DNA of 64,000 bases from Tuwongella immobilis. Lineage in GTDB: Bacteria; Planctomycetota; Planctomycetia; Gemmatales; Gemmataceae. The DNA is taken from NCBI RefSeq assembly GCF_901538355.1, contig NZ_LR593887.1:1526920-1590919 (forward strand). The letters run 5' to 3'. A model generated the notes under the pieces. It was not told the origin of the DNA. It did no database searches and saw nothing but the letters and a program-made list of their open reading frames with translations. Positions 15,872 through 21,625 of this stretch are shown here, piece after piece; positions within the stretch are counted from its first letter, which is position 1, and each line of letters begins with the position of its first letter. The position numbers and the translations under genes were made by a program.

Positions 15872-18292
15872 ATGAGCGATTCGGCCTTGCAACCGCTTTT
15901 GGAGCGGTTGACCTCTCAGAATGCCATCACCAGCAGCGAGGCGGGAATCGTCTCGTGGTGGTGGACGCTGGAACGGCGACCGCAGGAATCGCTCGAAGAG
16001 TTTTTAGAACGCAAGCATCTGCTCGATCCCCCGGAAATGGCTGCACTCCGCGAGGGACGCCCGATCAGCGAAGAAGCTGCCGAACAGATGCGCATGACCT
16101 TGCGTGCGTTGGTCGAACGCGGCGACGATGGTTCGCTCATTACGCAATCGTCGATGGCCCGCAGTTCCTCCATCGGCAAGCCCGGCTCCAGCATCCTGAC
16201 CAATAGCGCCTTGGTGCGGCGCTCGCTTCCCGGCGGCGAGGGGCTGCCGACGATTCAGCCCGGCAGCCGACTCGGAATCTACCAACTCACCGAGCGGTTG
16301 GGGCAGGGGACGCACGGCATCGTCTTTCGCGGCATGGACACCATTCGTCAGATGCCCGTGGCGGTGAAGGTGTTACGTCCGCAGTTTCGCTCCGATCCCG
16401 CGATTTACGCCCAACTCCAAGCCGAAATCCGCATCATCATGGGGCTGGAGCATCCCAACCTCACTCGAATCCTCCACTTGGGTGAAGAAGGCGAAACGGC
16501 GTTTCTGGTGATGGAATACGTCGAGGGGTTGAGCCTCGCGGAACTCATCAAGCAGACGGGCTATCTGCGACTCGACAAAGCATTGAATATCGTCAATCAG
16601 ATTGTGCTGGGATTGGCCCACGCCCACGCCGCCGGGGTGCTGCACCGCGACATCAAGCCGGCGAATATCCTCATCAATCGGGAAGGGGCGGCCAAGCTCG
16701 TCGATTTGGGGCTGAACCTGACGACGCCGGTCTCGGATTCGACGGCCACCGGGCGAGCGGATCGCAATGCCATGCCCTGGTATCTCTCCCCGGAAGCAGC
16801 CCGATCGTTCACGACGGCGGATCATCGTTCGGATATGTATGCGTTGGGGGCGGTCTTCTACCATGCGCTCACCGGTCGGCCGCCGTTCGATGGCGGCAGT
16901 CGCATCCAGTTGCTGATGCGGCACTTGCGCGAATTGCCCGTGCCACCCCATGACATTCGCCCCGAACTTCCCGTCGCGGCGTCGGTGATTGTGTTGCGCA
17001 TGCTGGCGAAGAAGCCCGAAGAGCGTTATACCACGTATGATGAATTGGCCATTGCTCTGGTCGATCTGCTGGTGTCGATCGAATCCGGCCCGGTGCGGAT
17101 GAAAGATTCGGCCATGACACCAGTGGGGCTGAGCTATTCCAGCGTCAATCGGCGTGTCGTGCAGCCGCCGTCGAGGATGGCACCCGAAACGGAGCCGGTG
17201 TCGCTGCAACGGCAGCCCGAGCCGATTCCGCCGCCGGACCCCTCGCGGATGGTCAAGCAGATTCTGCGAGACGGAATCGCCGCCGCGAAATCCGGCGATC
17301 GACCGAAAGCCGCCGGGCTGTTTCGGCAAGCGACCAGCTTGGATCCCAACAGCGAACTCGCGTGGTTGTGGTTGGCTGGGGTGGTGGATAACGCCGAAGA
17401 AAGCATTCCATGCTTGCAACGAGCGTTGGAGATTAACCCCGATTGTCAGCAGGCCAGCGATGCGTTGACCTGGTATCAATCGACGATGCCGCATCTGTTC
17501 GATAGTTGGGAGTGTCTCATCTGCGGACATCGCTGCAAACGACCGCGGGAACGCTGTCCGCATTGCAACTCGGTGGTTTCGCTGGAATTTCCGAATGCGC
17601 TGCTGGAGCCGCAAGCCCGCACGGAGATTGTGGTTGCGCAGATTAGCCGATTGGAAGAACAGGCCCGTCGGGTGCCGTCGGTGCCGGCGTATCGGGCGTT
17701 GGGGCTGGCGTTGCTGAATCTCAATCGCTTCGATGAGGGGATGCAGCAGTTGATGAATGCCCTCAAACTCCAACCCGATGACGAAGAGTTTAGCAAGCAG
17801 ATTCAAATCTTTGCCGAGCGGCATCTGCTCAAGCGTGCGGTGGCGGAGCGCGTGTTGGCCTCCATGACGCTGCCCCCGGCGCTGGGGCGACCGCTGCTGA
17901 TGGCGCGGCCCGACTCGGCAACGGTGCGGCGAATCTTCGTGTTGCACGAGCGTCTGATTATTCGGCTCGTCATGGAAAAGCTGCTCGCCCGGCAGGGGTA
18001 TGTCGTCTATACGGCCCCTGACTTGCAAACAATGTTTGAACAATTGAAGGTGGCGCGGCCATCGCTCATCCTCCTCAATTTTCATTTCCCGTCTTATAAC
18101 AGTCTCGAACTTTGTGAGATGTTCCGCAACGACCCCCGCACGGCCGATGCGCCAGTGGTGGTGATCGCCAATCCGGGAGTGGCCCCCGATCGGGTGCTGC
18201 TGCGGGATGTCGGCGTTTCGGAGCTGATTGTTCAACCGTTTGATCCACGCGATCTGGTCGAACTGGTCTCGCATTTGTGTCCGCGACTGTAA
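15872..18292 (+). CDS. Ser/Thr protein kinase with TPR, zinc ribbon and degenerate receiver domain
   Basis: 806 aa. The kinase domain (about 135-400) has LGQGTHGIVFRG, lysine K166 in VAVKVL, HRDIKPAN with D260, and a DLG instead of DFG at 278-280. After a linker, TPR-like repeats (about 460-530) are followed by a four-Cys zinc ribbon, CLICGHRCKRPRERCPHC, near 548-565. The last 120 residues have the fold pattern of a response-regulator receiver, but the phosphate-accepting Asp is Asn (LILLNFHFP, N736), the acidic pair of strand 1 is missing (FVLHERL), and the conserved Lys is Gln (VQPFDP, Q788). It should not be phosphorylated in the usual way. There is no membrane helix, so it is cytoplasmic. 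Confidence 0.9.
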   Translation: MSDSALQPLLERLTSQNAITSSEAGIVSWWWTLERRPQESLEEFLERKHLLDPPEMAALREGRPISEEAAEQMRMTLRALVERGDDGSLITQSSMARSSSIGKPGSSILTNSALVRRSLPGGEGLPTIQPGSRLGIYQLTERLGQGTHGIVFRGMDTIRQMPVAVKVLRPQFRSDPAIYAQLQAEIRIIMGLEHPNLTRILHLGEEGETAFLVMEYVEGLSLAELIKQTGYLRLDKALNIVNQIVLGLAHAHAAGVLHRDIKPANILINREGAAKLVDLGLNLTTPVSDSTATGRADRNAMPWYLSPEAARSFTTADHRSDMYALGAVFYHALTGRPPFDGGSRIQLLMRHLRELPVPPHDIRPELPVAASVIVLRMLAKKPEERYTTYDELAIALVDLLVSIESGPVRMKDSAMTPVGLSYSSVNRRVVQPPSRMAPETEPVSLQRQPEPIPPPDPSRMVKQILRDGIAAAKSGDRPKAAGLFRQATSLDPNSELAWLWLAGVVDNAEESIPCLQRALEINPDCQQASDALTWYQSTMPHLFDSWECLICGHRCKRPRERCPHCNSVVSLEFPNALLEPQARTEIVVAQISRLEEQARRVPSVPAYRALGLALLNLNRFDEGMQQLMNALKLQPDDEEFSKQIQIFAERHLLKRAVAERVLASMTLPPALGRPLLMARPDSATVRRIFVLHERLIIRLVMEKLLARQGYVVYTAPDLQTMFEQLKVARPSLILLNFHFPSYNSLELCEMFRNDPRTADAPVVVIANPGVAPDRVLLRDVGVSELIVQPFDPRDLVELVSHLCPRL

Positions 18293-19265: not shown

Positions 19266-19394
19266 CCATCGGTGCCCTTTCTATAATCAGCTTGTCATGC
19301 CATTCCGCATGGTGTGATCCGAACCTACCGAACTCACCGTTGGTTCCTGCCGAATTTGTTCTTCCACGTTTGTACCTGCCACAAGGATGGATCG

Positions 19395-20405
19395 ATGCGT
19401 TCTCTCCAAACCCAGAGACGGTCAGCGTTTACGCTGATCGAGCTTCTCGTCGTGATTGCAATTATTGCGATTCTCATCGGATTATTGCTGCCTGCCGTGC
19501 AGAAAGTGCGCGAAGCGGCGGCCCGAATGCAATGCCAGAACAATCTGAAACAGATTGGACTCGCGGCTCAAAATTACCACGATTCGAACAATCGCATGCC
19601 TCCCGGAGCGGCCACCGATCAAGCGCCGTTCGGCACCGGCGGTGGTTATGGCAGCAGTTGGATGATTTTCTTGCTGCCGTACATCGAACAAGACAACCTG
19701 TTTCGCCAGTGGCAATTCACGGGTAATTCCGGCTGGGGAAACGGCGTCAACGCCGCGATCTCGGTGCAGTCGCTGAAGACATACATTTGTCCGAGTTCGC
19801 CGCTGGATCTGCTGTGTAAGAGTCCTCCGGGCGTGCCTCGCATGGCGGGTGATTACGTGGCGATTGCTGGTGGCGCAAATATTGCCATCCCTGGTTTCAC
19901 CGAAACTCGCGTGGCGGTGTCGTCCGGTTCAGGCTGTTGCGGACCCGGGATCATGGGGGCAGGCGGGGTGATGCACTCCAACAGCCAAGTGCAGATCACC
20001 GGCATCACCGATGGCACCAGCAACACGATGATTGTCAGCGAAAACGGCGATTTCCTGTTCACCGCGAACGGAACGCGAGTCGATTGGCGACCCGGTGCGC
20101 AGCATGGCTTCGCCATGGGCGTCGCCTTCGGTGGATCGCTGAACGGAGGCGAACGGGCATTCAACACGACCACGATTCGCTATTCCATCAATCAGCGCCG
20201 CGGCTGGGCGGACGGAGCCGGGGATTGTTCGACGGGCGTTTGCCAAAATCAAGGGGCGAATACGCCGTTGCGATCGGCCCACACCGGCGGCGTGAATGCC
20301 GTGTTTGGGGATGGATCGGTGCGATTCCTGACCGAGAGCATTCCGTTGGCGACGTTGATTCAACTGTCGATCCGCGACGATGGTACGGTCATTAATCTGC
20401 CGTAA
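19395..20405 (+). CDS. DUF1559 domain protein with prepilin-type N-terminus (copy 1)
   Basis: 336 aa from the ATG at 19395 (AGGA 8 bases upstream). The N-terminus has the type IV prepilin cleavage/methylation signal, [19 protein letters not shown], followed by [20 protein letters not shown] and, near the C-terminus, the planctomycete H-X9-DG motif ([17 protein letters not shown]). Prepilin peptidase processing and assembly into a surface or periplasmic pseudopilus-like structure is inferred from the signal. Gly/Asn-rich middle. It forms a tandem pair of equal length with the next gene, followed by a lipoprotein gene. Confidence 0.92.
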
Positions 20406-20614
20406 TGCATTGATTTCCTTCGCGTGGTTGTTGCGCCGATGGAACGGTGCCGAACGGTTCGACTCATTCGCACACTGATGATTCATGTGAAATCGATGAG
20501 AGAATCTTTCGGCTCTTGAACTGTTAGCATGCGACGACAACAATGATGCGTCACCGGGAGACGATTCGCTCCTGGTGGCGTCTCATCATTCCGAAGGTAT
20601 TGTTGGAGGCGACG

Positions 20615-21625
20615 ATGCACTCTCCAAATCTTCGACGACGATCGGCATTTACGCTGATCGAACTTCTCGTCGTGATTGCGATTATTGCCATTTTGATTGG
20701 CCTGCTGTTGCCTGCCGTGCAAAAAGTGCGCGAAGCGGCGGCTCGGATGCAATGCCAGAATAATCTGAAGCAGATTGGACTCGCGGCTCAAAATTACCAC
20801 GATTCGAACAATCGCATGCCTCCCGGTGGGGCGAGCGATGTGGCACCGTTCGGTACCGGTGGTGGTTATGGTAGCAGTTGGATGATTTTCCTGTTGCCAT
20901 ACATCGAACAAGACAACCTGTATCGGCAATGGCAATTCAATGGGAATTCCGGCTGGCAAAATAGCGTCAATATGAACATTTCCGTGTTGTCGCTGAAGTC
21001 GTACATCTGTCCGAGTTCACCGTTGGATGTGCTTTGTCCGGGACCGCCGGGCGTGCCCCGCATGGGTGGTGATTACGTCGCCATTGCCGGAGGGGTGAAT
21101 CTGCCCGTGCAGGGATTTGTCGAAACTCGCATTGCGACATCGTCGGGCACCGGCTGCTGCGGACCCGGGATCATGGGGGCGGGCGGGGTGATGCACTCCA
21201 ACAGCCAAGTGCAGATCACCGGCATTACCGACGGCACCAGCAACACGATGATTGTCAGCGAAGACGGCAACTTCCTGTTCACGGCCAATGGCTCGCGCGT
21301 CAACTGGCGAGCGGGTGGGCCGCATGGCTTTGCCATGGGCGTCGGCTATGGCGGGTCGCTGAGCGGGGGCGATCGTCCGTTCAATATGACGACCATTCGC
21401 TATGCGATCAATCAGGTGCGTGGCTGGCCGAATTCGCCCGGCGATTGCTCGTTGGGTGTTTGCGAAAATACCGGTGGGAACACGCCGTTGCGATCGGCCC
21501 ACACGGGTGGCGTCAATGCCGTGTTCGCCGATGGTTCGGTGCGATTCCTGACCGACAGTTTGCCCGTCGAAACGCTCATTCAGTTGGGCATTCGAGACGA
21601 TGGAACGGTCATTAACTTGCCGTAA
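20615..21625 (+). CDS. DUF1559 domain protein with prepilin-type N-terminus (copy 2)
   Basis: 336 aa from the ATG at 20615 (GGAGG upstream). It is a close paralogue of the gene before it, same length, with long identical stretches around the prepilin signal ([19 protein letters not shown]), the [12 protein letters not shown] and [19 protein letters not shown] segments, and the end ([10 protein letters not shown]). Divergence is concentrated in the middle. This is a recent tandem duplication. An H-X9-DG motif ([17 protein letters not shown]) is present. The following lipoprotein gene begins 88 bp later and is probably in the same transcript. Confidence 0.92.
   Translation: MHSPNLRRRSAFTLIELLVVIAIIAILIGLLLPAVQKVREAAARMQCQNNLKQIGLAAQNYHDSNNRMPPGGASDVAPFGTGGGYGSSWMIFLLPYIEQDNLYRQWQFNGNSGWQNSVNMNISVLSLKSYICPSSPLDVLCPGPPGVPRMGGDYVAIAGGVNLPVQGFVETRIATSSGTGCCGPGIMGAGGVMHSNSQVQITGITDGTSNTMIVSEDGNFLFTANGSRVNWRAGGPHGFAMGVGYGGSLSGGDRPFNMTTIRYAINQVRGWPNSPGDCSLGVCENTGGNTPLRSAHTGGVNAVFADGSVRFLTDSLPVETLIQLGIRDDGTVINLP

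What the first reader, a model, noticed from the sequence alone, without database searches (positions are those of the whole stretch)
15872..18292. Ser/Thr kinase with a pseudo-receiver domain
The C-terminal domain keeps the receiver fold pattern but lacks the phospho-Asp (N736), the acidic pair and the Lys (Q788). It is fused to an active-looking kinase with TPR and a zinc ribbon. A receiver that cannot be phosphorylated could act as a binding module linking two signalling types.
Basis: partly seen in the sequence, partly recalled or inferred. Interest (0 to 1): 0.5.

Follow-up and report, generated by a model that had tools for sequence, protein, structure and literature searches.

The report
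Kinase with a disabled receiver tail
A bacterial Ser/Thr kinase has picked up a scaffold-plus-receiver module of chemosensory origin whose phosphate-accepting site is lost but whose fold is kept, so the tail probably works as a docking or control part.

Summary
The ORF at 15872-18292 encodes an 806-aa Hanks-type kinase joined to TPR, a four-Cys zinc ribbon, TPR and a receiver fold. All five receiver signature positions are changed: H692/E693, N736, A766, Q788. One acid survives in the pair (E693, or D681 in an alternative register). The C-terminal half descends from a stand-alone TPR-ribbon-TPR-REC protein of Gemmataceae. Several copies of that protein sit beside chemosensory genes (CheW, MCP and/or CheA). 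Relatives are mostly intact: 43 of 45 examined keep the Asp and 39 of 45 keep all five residues. The loss is therefore lineage-specific, and none of the module relatives examined carries a kinase. Simple decay does not fit. The TPR-ribbon part diverges at the normal rate while the receiver is far more diverged (26% vs 51% identity). Yet 38-39 of 41 hydrophobic core positions are kept (at most 85% in 600 neutral simulations), and the model folds as a complete receiver (pLDDT 92, Z 20). Most likely it is a phosphorylation-independent docking or regulatory tail; that function is inferred, not shown. The same genome has a second kinase-pseudo-receiver fusion, and fungal Rim15 has a similar layout, so this is a new variant of a known kind.

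The parts
15872..18292 (+). whole ORF, 806 aa: N-terminal region, Ser/Thr kinase, TPR, zinc ribbon, TPR, pseudo-receiver
15872..16261 (+). N-terminal region (aa 1-130), shared with stand-alone kinases in this genome and in other Gemmataceae
   Evidence: G033:C188 41% over aa 9-404; G000:C1:1101755-1102993 36% over aa 3-405
16280..17035 (+). Hanks-type kinase domain, aa 137-388, catalytic motifs present
17273..17470 (+). TPR region 1, aa 468-533 (shorter than in the stand-alone relatives)
17513..17566 (+). zinc ribbon C548-x2-C551-x10-C562-x2-C565; the Cys are invariant in the 12 aligned rows
17687..17791 (+). TPR region 2, aa 606-640
17894..17944 (+). aa 675-691, a segment resembling the family's beta1-DDSATVR receiver start; possible displaced or remnant copy next to the modelled beta1
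17927..18286 (+). pseudo-receiver domain, aa 686-805, complete (beta-alpha)5 in the models
17945..17950 (+). H692-E693, in place of the acidic pair (modelled register)
18077..18079 (+). N736, in place of the phospho-accepting Asp
18167..18169 (+). A766, in place of the conserved Thr/Ser
18233..18235 (+). Q788, in place of the conserved Lys

Best explanation
A stand-alone Gemmataceae kinase (N-terminal region plus Hanks-type kinase) became fused to a TPR-zinc ribbon-TPR-receiver protein whose relatives serve, or served, as response regulators of a type-IV-pilus-like chemosensory system. After the fusion the receiver no longer needed a histidine-kinase input. It lost all five phosphotransfer positions and the switch residues (K-3 = Leu, T+1 = Asn), but it was kept folded. 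It most likely works as a phosphorylation-independent docking module: with the TPRs and the ribbon it brings a partner or substrate to the kinase, or places the kinase at a site, so that control is exerted by binding rather than by Asp phosphorylation. Shown here: architecture, ancestry, residue loss, retention of the core, intact relatives. Inferred: kinase activity, order of events, docking function, partner.
For: Architecture and residues. The receiver is sister to the 11 stand-alone relatives' receivers (support 97/88) on a branch of 1.65 against 0-0.51 for theirs. The TPR-ribbon part is 31% identical to relatives (relatives among themselves 34%), but the receiver is only 26% (relatives 51%; the 40 pairs equally far apart in the TPR part 49%, minimum 36%); in the other register 27% vs 50%. 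Hydrophobic core kept at 39 of 41 columns vs mean 67%, maximum 85% in 600 neutral simulations; 38 of 41 in the other register, for which the simulations were not rerun. Models pLDDT 91.5 and 91.8; Z 20.1 to Spo0F. Chemosensory neighbours of relatives: REC, CheW, MCP and/or CheA. Precedent for docking: the FrzS pseudo-receiver binds SgmX (PMC12632262, section 19 read).
Against: No binding partner, genetics or expression data. The fusion is seen in one genome only, so conservation of the pseudo-receiver state cannot be measured with orthologues. The stop-codon test is weak: 9.5% of neutral simulations had no stop, and 9 of 600 scored as well on the family HMM. The simulations start from present-day relatives, not from a reconstructed ancestor. 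The tree place of a long branch is unsure and its bootstrap had not settled. The chemosensory story is imperfect: four genomes (G050, G055, G068, G094) have intact relatives but no matching MCP was found in them (several are drafts, 10 candidates per genome scored).
Confidence: 0.55

Rival explanations
1. The pseudo-receiver is a cis-regulatory lid on the kinase that senses a small molecule such as a nucleotide second messenger. Ligand binding releases or imposes inhibition, as c-di-GMP does through the pseudo-receiver of ShkA.
For: ShkA precedent (PMC7010744, abstract and passages seen). A second kinase-pseudo-receiver protein in this genome carries an HD domain (Pfam HD_5/HD, read here as HD-GYP from its motifs). 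The core is conserved.
Against: ShkA is a histidine kinase with the lid between the catalytic domain and a second receiver; here about 300 residues (linker, TPR, ribbon) separate kinase and tail. No ligand motif was tested.
Confidence: 0.2
2. Orphaned relic: the receiver lost its donor, is under weak constraint, and is only a passive C-terminal cap on its way to loss.
For: Very long branch. No match in this genome to the MCP that 7 of the 11 genomes with a ribbon-type relative have. In G045 one orphan copy has lost the receiver altogether and its neighbour has a degenerate one. Neutral drift gives no stop in 9.5% of runs.
Against: Core retention of 38-39 of 41 columns against a simulated maximum of 85%; high-confidence fold.
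Confidence: 0.17
3. The tail is still covalently switched, but on Ser/Thr by its own or another Ser/Thr kinase instead of on Asp, like plant pseudo-response regulators.
For: It lies in cis to a kinase with intact motifs. Plant PRR precedent as told in PMC12632262 (section 4 read).
Against: No phosphosite evidence; plant PRRs act through DNA binding and the clock (same section).
Confidence: 0.08

Closest known systems
Stand-alone TPR-zinc ribbon-TPR-receiver proteins of Gemmataceae, several beside chemosensory genes (PilG-like; name recalled)
   Same: TPR-ribbon-TPR-REC order, four invariant Cys, 25-32% identity in the 12-row alignment; the receivers form one group with this one
   Different: They have no kinase, most have more TPR before the ribbon, and 14 of the 15 Gemmataceae ribbon-type members in the residue table keep the phospho-Asp
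Fungal Rim15 kinases
   Same: Ser/Thr kinase with a C-terminal receiver whose Asp is replaced in Ascomycota (Glu, Ala or Gly) and intact in Basidiomycota and Mucoromycota (PMC8510515, passages seen)
   Different: Fungal, with other accessory domains and no TPR-ribbon module (recalled); there the degenerate state is general across a phylum
Gemmataceae kinase-receiver-HD fusions
   Same: Hanks kinase fused to a receiver; 5 of 26 examined lack the Asp, including one in this genome
   Different: Receiver in the middle, HD output domain, no ribbon; 18 of 26 keep both Asp and Lys
Bacterial pseudo-receivers FrzS and ShkA REC1
   Same: Receiver fold without the phosphorylation site, used for protein or c-di-GMP binding (PMC12632262 section 19; PMC1974792 start of abstract in the listing; PMC7010744 passages)
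   Different: Not fused to a Ser/Thr kinase (ShkA is a histidine kinase; FrzS recalled)
PhoB- and Spo0F-type receiver domains
   Same: Same complete (beta-alpha)5 fold
   Different: They keep the phosphorylation residues (recalled); 14-30% identity in the listed receiver rows

Membership tests
Receiver domain fold (PF00072) | profile match above the curated cut-off and (beta-alpha)5 fold | tested here: met
   41.8 bits against cut-off 30.2; five strands and five helices, Z 20.1
Phosphorylatable receiver | acidic pair, phospho-Asp, Thr/Ser and Lys | tested here: not met
   H-E, N, A, Q; one acid of the pair at most in either register
Bacterial pseudo-receiver (PsR) | recognised as a receiver but lacking key phosphotransfer residues (definition in PMC12632262, abstract) | tested here: met
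   none of the five canonical residues in the modelled register
Bacterial pseudo-receiver (PsR) | function without Asp phosphorylation | not testable with these tools
   needs biochemistry or genetics
Hanks-type Ser/Thr kinase | glycine loop, VAxK, HRD, DxG and xPE motifs | tested here: met
   the DFG position reads DLG
Hanks-type Ser/Thr kinase | catalytic activity | not testable with these tools
   needs an assay
TPR-ribbon-TPR-REC chemosensory family | common descent of the whole C-terminal module | tested here: met
   single-sequence search finds relatives at E 5e-32 over 1-288 of 290; receiver tree 97/88; profile match 399 bits, but the query was in the profile
TPR-ribbon-TPR-REC chemosensory family | stand-alone protein | tested here: not met
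   fused to a kinase; in L044-L165 no other ORF that matches the module matches the kinase at E 1e-10
TPR-ribbon-TPR-REC chemosensory family | linkage to chemosensory genes | tested here: not met
   the genome's four CheW matches lie at 2.07 and 2.75 Mb, the window at 1.53-1.59 Mb; none recognised by eye in the nearby ORFs. Not a strict criterion: L200 and L075 also show no MCP or CheA gene nearby, by eye
Rim15-like kinases | Ser/Thr kinase with C-terminal receiver | tested here: met
   layout only; compared with PMC8510515
Rim15-like kinases | common descent with fungal Rim15 | not tested
   the relatives found are bacterial; Rim15 itself was not compared

The most novel reading that the evidence does not exclude
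In Gemmataceae, Ser/Thr kinases repeatedly capture two-component receivers and switch off their phosphotransfer chemistry while keeping the fold, making a class of phosphorylation-independent control tails for Ser/Thr kinases. This would be a bacterial parallel to fungal Rim15 and a route by which histidine-kinase circuits become Ser/Thr-kinase circuits. The protein here and the disabled kinase-receiver-HD proteins (a group in G050, G033 and G030, and one in this genome) would be separate cases of the same trend.
Probability: 0.3. Interest if true: 0.62.

Novelty: new variant of a known kind. Interest (0 to 1): 0.4.

Why it matters
A 2025 review says that pseudo-receivers are common but that how bacterial ones are activated and inactivated remains a mystery (PMC12632262, abstract). 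Here the ancestor state is readable: intact receivers in chemosensory relatives, one disabled copy fused to a kinase, and the fold preserved. That gives a tractable pair (intact stand-alone protein vs disabled fused one) for asking what a receiver does once Asp phosphorylation is gone. It also gives a bacterial counterpart to Rim15, the role of whose receiver PMC8510515 describes as apparently not yet studied.

Tried and rejected
Conserved pseudo-receiver family: rejected, 43 of 45 relatives keep the Asp.

Receiver borrowed from an unrelated response regulator: not favoured, since it groups with the stand-alone family against 48 other receivers of the genome (97/88). The branch is long and the bootstrap had not settled.

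Kinase-fused orthologues elsewhere: none seen in 95 family genomes (single sequence), 102 order and 397 class genomes (module profile), or 392 phylum genomes (whole protein). These sets overlap. At most 25, 17, 4 and 2 candidates per genome were scored, so absence is not proven, least of all.

Stop-free frame as proof of selection: too weak (9.5% of neutral runs). An earlier version of the simulation with another target gave 8.3% without stops, and 20 of 360 at or above the observed HMM score.

Loss of the MCP as sufficient cause: not supported, because in four genomes without a match to it the relatives are intact.

Enrichment of Asp loss among kinase-fused receivers of this genome: 2 of 3 vs 2 of 46, but one of the two is the protein that brought me here, so this is not evidence.

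Recent tandem duplication as the source of the extra beta1-like segment: the two 36-base stretches share only 15 of 36 bases. A first test on too short a linker missed the segment.

Literature: no description of a planctomycete kinase-receiver fusion came up in the listings (titles and starts of abstracts); held no paper. The library is open-access only. The Planctomycetota kinase paper PMC11032199 has 0 occurrences of 'receiver' in its main text; its supplements could not be read.

Not done: nucleotide dN/dS (no close orthologue), kinase-tail contacts (no PAE output), docking, Pfam annotation of the window's neighbouring genes.

Full report
WHAT IS THERE. The ORF at 15872-18292 (+) encodes 806 aa without interruption. 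Pfam finds a protein kinase at 137-388, TPRs around 468-533 and 606-640, and a receiver at 692-799 scoring 41.8 bits against a cut-off of 30.2. Kinase motifs are complete, so activity is likely but not shown. Between the TPRs lies C548-x2-C551-x10-C562-x2-C565, invariant in the 12 aligned rows, window included. The window lies in a 6.69-Mb single-contig genome.

THE RECEIVER. Against intact relatives, the five signature positions read H-E-N-A-Q instead of D-D-D-T/S-K. Other positions tied to phospho-switching are also changed: T+1 is Asn767, K-3 is Leu785 and D+8 is Ser744, while Pro740 at D+4 is kept (meaning of the positions from PMC12632262, section 7 read). So N736 and Q788 in the finding are right. 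The acidic pair is not wholly gone, because E693 is acidic. A complication was found: aa 675-691 match the family's beta1-DDS-alpha1 start with score 23.75, against 11.0 for the start that the HMM and models use. Only 22 of 104,227 17-mers reach 23.75 in ORFs of the window and 43 fetched loci (42 of this genome, one of G033). That list includes this segment itself and two entries that come from overlapping loci; most of the rest look like real receiver starts, at least two do not. 7 of 20,000 shuffles of the region reach it. Either a remnant copy sits beside the working strand, or the domain carries a 12-residue insertion. Both AlphaFold2 models use RIFVL (687-691) as strand 1; the construct contained no other candidate. 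In both registers the Asp, Thr and Lys changes are the same and the first acid is missing.

FOLD. The 353-residue C-terminal model (36 sequences, alignment A2) has mean pLDDT 91.5, with five strands and five helices in the receiver. The domain alone (30 sequences, alignment A3) has pLDDT 91.8 and pTM 0.87. Foldseek's best matches are PhoB and other receivers, TM by target 0.83-0.88 for the first seven. VIA-align gives Z 20.1, rmsd 1.7 over 119 residues to Spo0F.

WHERE IT COMES FROM. A search of 95 family genomes with the C-terminal 290 aa finds stand-alone proteins covering the whole module at 26-34% identity. Reading 11 of them shows TPR-ribbon-TPR-REC proteins in stop-to-stop frames of 417-505 residues, and one of 662. 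Their receivers keep the acidic pair, the Asp and the Lys, and one (L021) lacks the Thr/Ser. A receiver tree with 48 other receivers of the genome puts the window receiver next to these 11 (97/88), on a branch of 1.65 against 0-0.51 for the 11 (the tool warns that the place of long rows is unsure and that the bootstrap had not settled). Neighbourhoods of relatives contain a second CheY-like receiver and CheW, MCP and/or CheA genes (L197/L241, L199, L077, L198; Pfam was run on L197/L241 only, the others rest on BLAST to them or on reading). This is the arrangement of a type-IV-pilus-like chemosensory system (name recalled). Others (L200, L075, L201) show no MCP or CheA gene nearby, by eye. The kinase half has its own stand-alone relatives: N-terminal region plus kinase, 36-41% identity over about 380-400 residues; the one scanned with Pfam has the kinase only (protein 8). 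So the gene is a fusion of two families. Of the ORFs in L044-L165 that match the module, only this protein also matches the kinase at E 1e-10.

IS THE LOSS CONSERVED? No. I aligned 45 relatives whose match reaches from TPR or ribbon into the receiver. Left out were repeat fetches of the same genes, receiver-only matches such as L098, L101 and L154-L165, and copies without a receiver. 43 of 45 keep the Asp, 44 of 45 the Lys and 39 of 45 all five (recounted). Exceptions are L061 (Asp to Ala), L060, L062 and L063 (second acid and Thr changed, Asp kept), L021 (Met for Thr) and L070 (all five changed). L070 is one of two tandem copies in G045 (contig C79), away from contig C142, which holds that genome's intact copy and an MCP match; the other tandem copy has lost its receiver. 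Loss has therefore also happened in a copy away from the operon. In the window genome 45 of 49 receivers keep the Asp and 41 keep all five.

DECAY OR RETENTION? The TPR-ribbon part is 31% identical to relatives, like relatives among themselves (34%). The receiver is 26% against 51%, or 27% against 50% in the other register. Constraint has changed in the receiver alone. But of 41 columns that are hydrophobic in the relatives, 39 are still hydrophobic. Neutral simulations run to the same distance from the consensus keep 67% on average and at most 85% (600 runs). In the other register it is 38 of 41, with columns defined anew and the simulations not rerun. On the family HMM the domain scores 60.8 bits against a neutral mean of 36.9, reached by 9 of 600. 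A stop-free frame is weak evidence (9.5% of runs). The phospho-site is lost and the fold is retained.

CONTEXT IN THE GENOME. The genome has four CheW-domain matches. Three belong to one cluster with CheR- and CheB-like genes, an MCP and CheA at 2.07 Mb; the fourth is a lone DUF11/CARDB-CheW gene at 2.755 Mb (CheR, CheB and the MCP recognised by eye). The MCP type that accompanies the module in relatives was found in 11 of 95 family genomes at E 1e-45, not in this one (10 candidates per genome scored). Of the 11 other genomes with a ribbon-type module (from the full-length rows), 7 have that MCP; in 4 (G050, G055, G068, G094) it was not found although their receivers are intact. Loss of the donor is thus a plausible but not sufficient cause.

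A SECOND EXAMPLE. Three proteins of this genome join a Hanks kinase to a receiver. One has an intact receiver (C1:220755). One, at C1:2677733-2680153, is kinase-receiver-HD with the Asp replaced by Glu and the Lys by Trp. A search with its receiver-HD part matches in 76 of 95 family genomes, though some rows cover the HD part only. In 26 examined, 5 lack the Asp and 8 lack Asp and/or Lys; 22 of the 26 were scored as carrying the kinase. G050, G033 and G030 form a supported group (99/97) in which all three lack the Asp; over the whole tree the eight need at least four changes, so they are not one clade. Disabled receivers in Ser/Thr kinases are therefore not a one-off here.

MECHANISM. Committed reading: a phosphorylation-independent docking tail working with the TPR-ribbon scaffold (confidence 0.55). 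Rivals: ligand-sensing lid (0.20), relic (0.17), Ser/Thr-switched tail (0.08). Shown: architecture, ancestry, residue changes, core retention. Inferred: kinase activity, fusion order, function.

KNOWN WORK. A review gives about 6% pseudo-receivers among bacterial receivers and says that most fungal ones are in Rim15p kinases, with a C-terminal pseudo-receiver (PMC12632262; abstract and sections 4, 7, 19 read). PMC8510515 (passages) describes Rim15 receivers with Glu, Ala or Gly for Asp in Ascomycota and intact Asp in Basidiomycota and Mucoromycota. PMC7010744 (passages) shows c-di-GMP acting through a pseudo-receiver. PMC4395418 was seen as passages only. Gemmataceae have 98-140 Ser/Thr kinases, and kinases with TPR occur among them (PMC11032199, passages). 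The layout is thus a new variant of a known kind: disabled receiver on a Ser/Thr kinase, here with a TPR-ribbon module of chemosensory descent.

Noticed in passing
L187:1734-4154 (G000:C1:2677733-2680153): Second Ser/Thr kinase with a disabled receiver, followed by an HD domain; Asp replaced by Glu, Lys by Trp. A related group in G050, G033 and G030 all lack the Asp.
   Followed up: partly
window 17894-17944 (aa 675-691): Segment that matches the family's receiver start (beta1-DDSATVR) better than the strand used in the models; a remnant copy or a 12-residue insertion.
   Followed up: partly
L194:6223-7218 and L194:7497-8906 (G045:C79): Two tandem TPR-ribbon copies, one without a receiver and one with all five receiver residues changed, while an intact copy lies on another contig (C142) that also carries an MCP match.
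   Followed up: partly
L056:1389-2867 (G034:C294): TPR-ribbon-TPR protein whose receiver is replaced by a different C-terminal region (no Pfam match listed there at E 0.001).
   Followed up: no
L240:8313-9971 (G000:C1:2754312-2755970): Lone DUF11/CARDB-CheW gene, resembling the DUF11-CheW gene of a relative's chemosensory operon; possible leftover of a dismantled operon.
   Followed up: partly
L186:12905-17108 (G000:C1, minus strand): Three adjacent Ser/Thr kinase genes; at least two of them are among the listed matches to the kinase half of this protein, one (C1:1101755-1102993) also over its N-terminal region.
   Followed up: no
L186:5368-7728 (G000:C1, minus strand): Histidine-kinase-like protein with two receiver-like regions; the C-terminal one lacks the phospho-Asp (Gln there).
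   Followed up: no
window 19314-20405 and 20543-21625: Two adjacent, very similar genes starting with a pilin-like N-terminus ([16 protein letters not shown]), of the DUF1559 type (name recalled).
   Followed up: no
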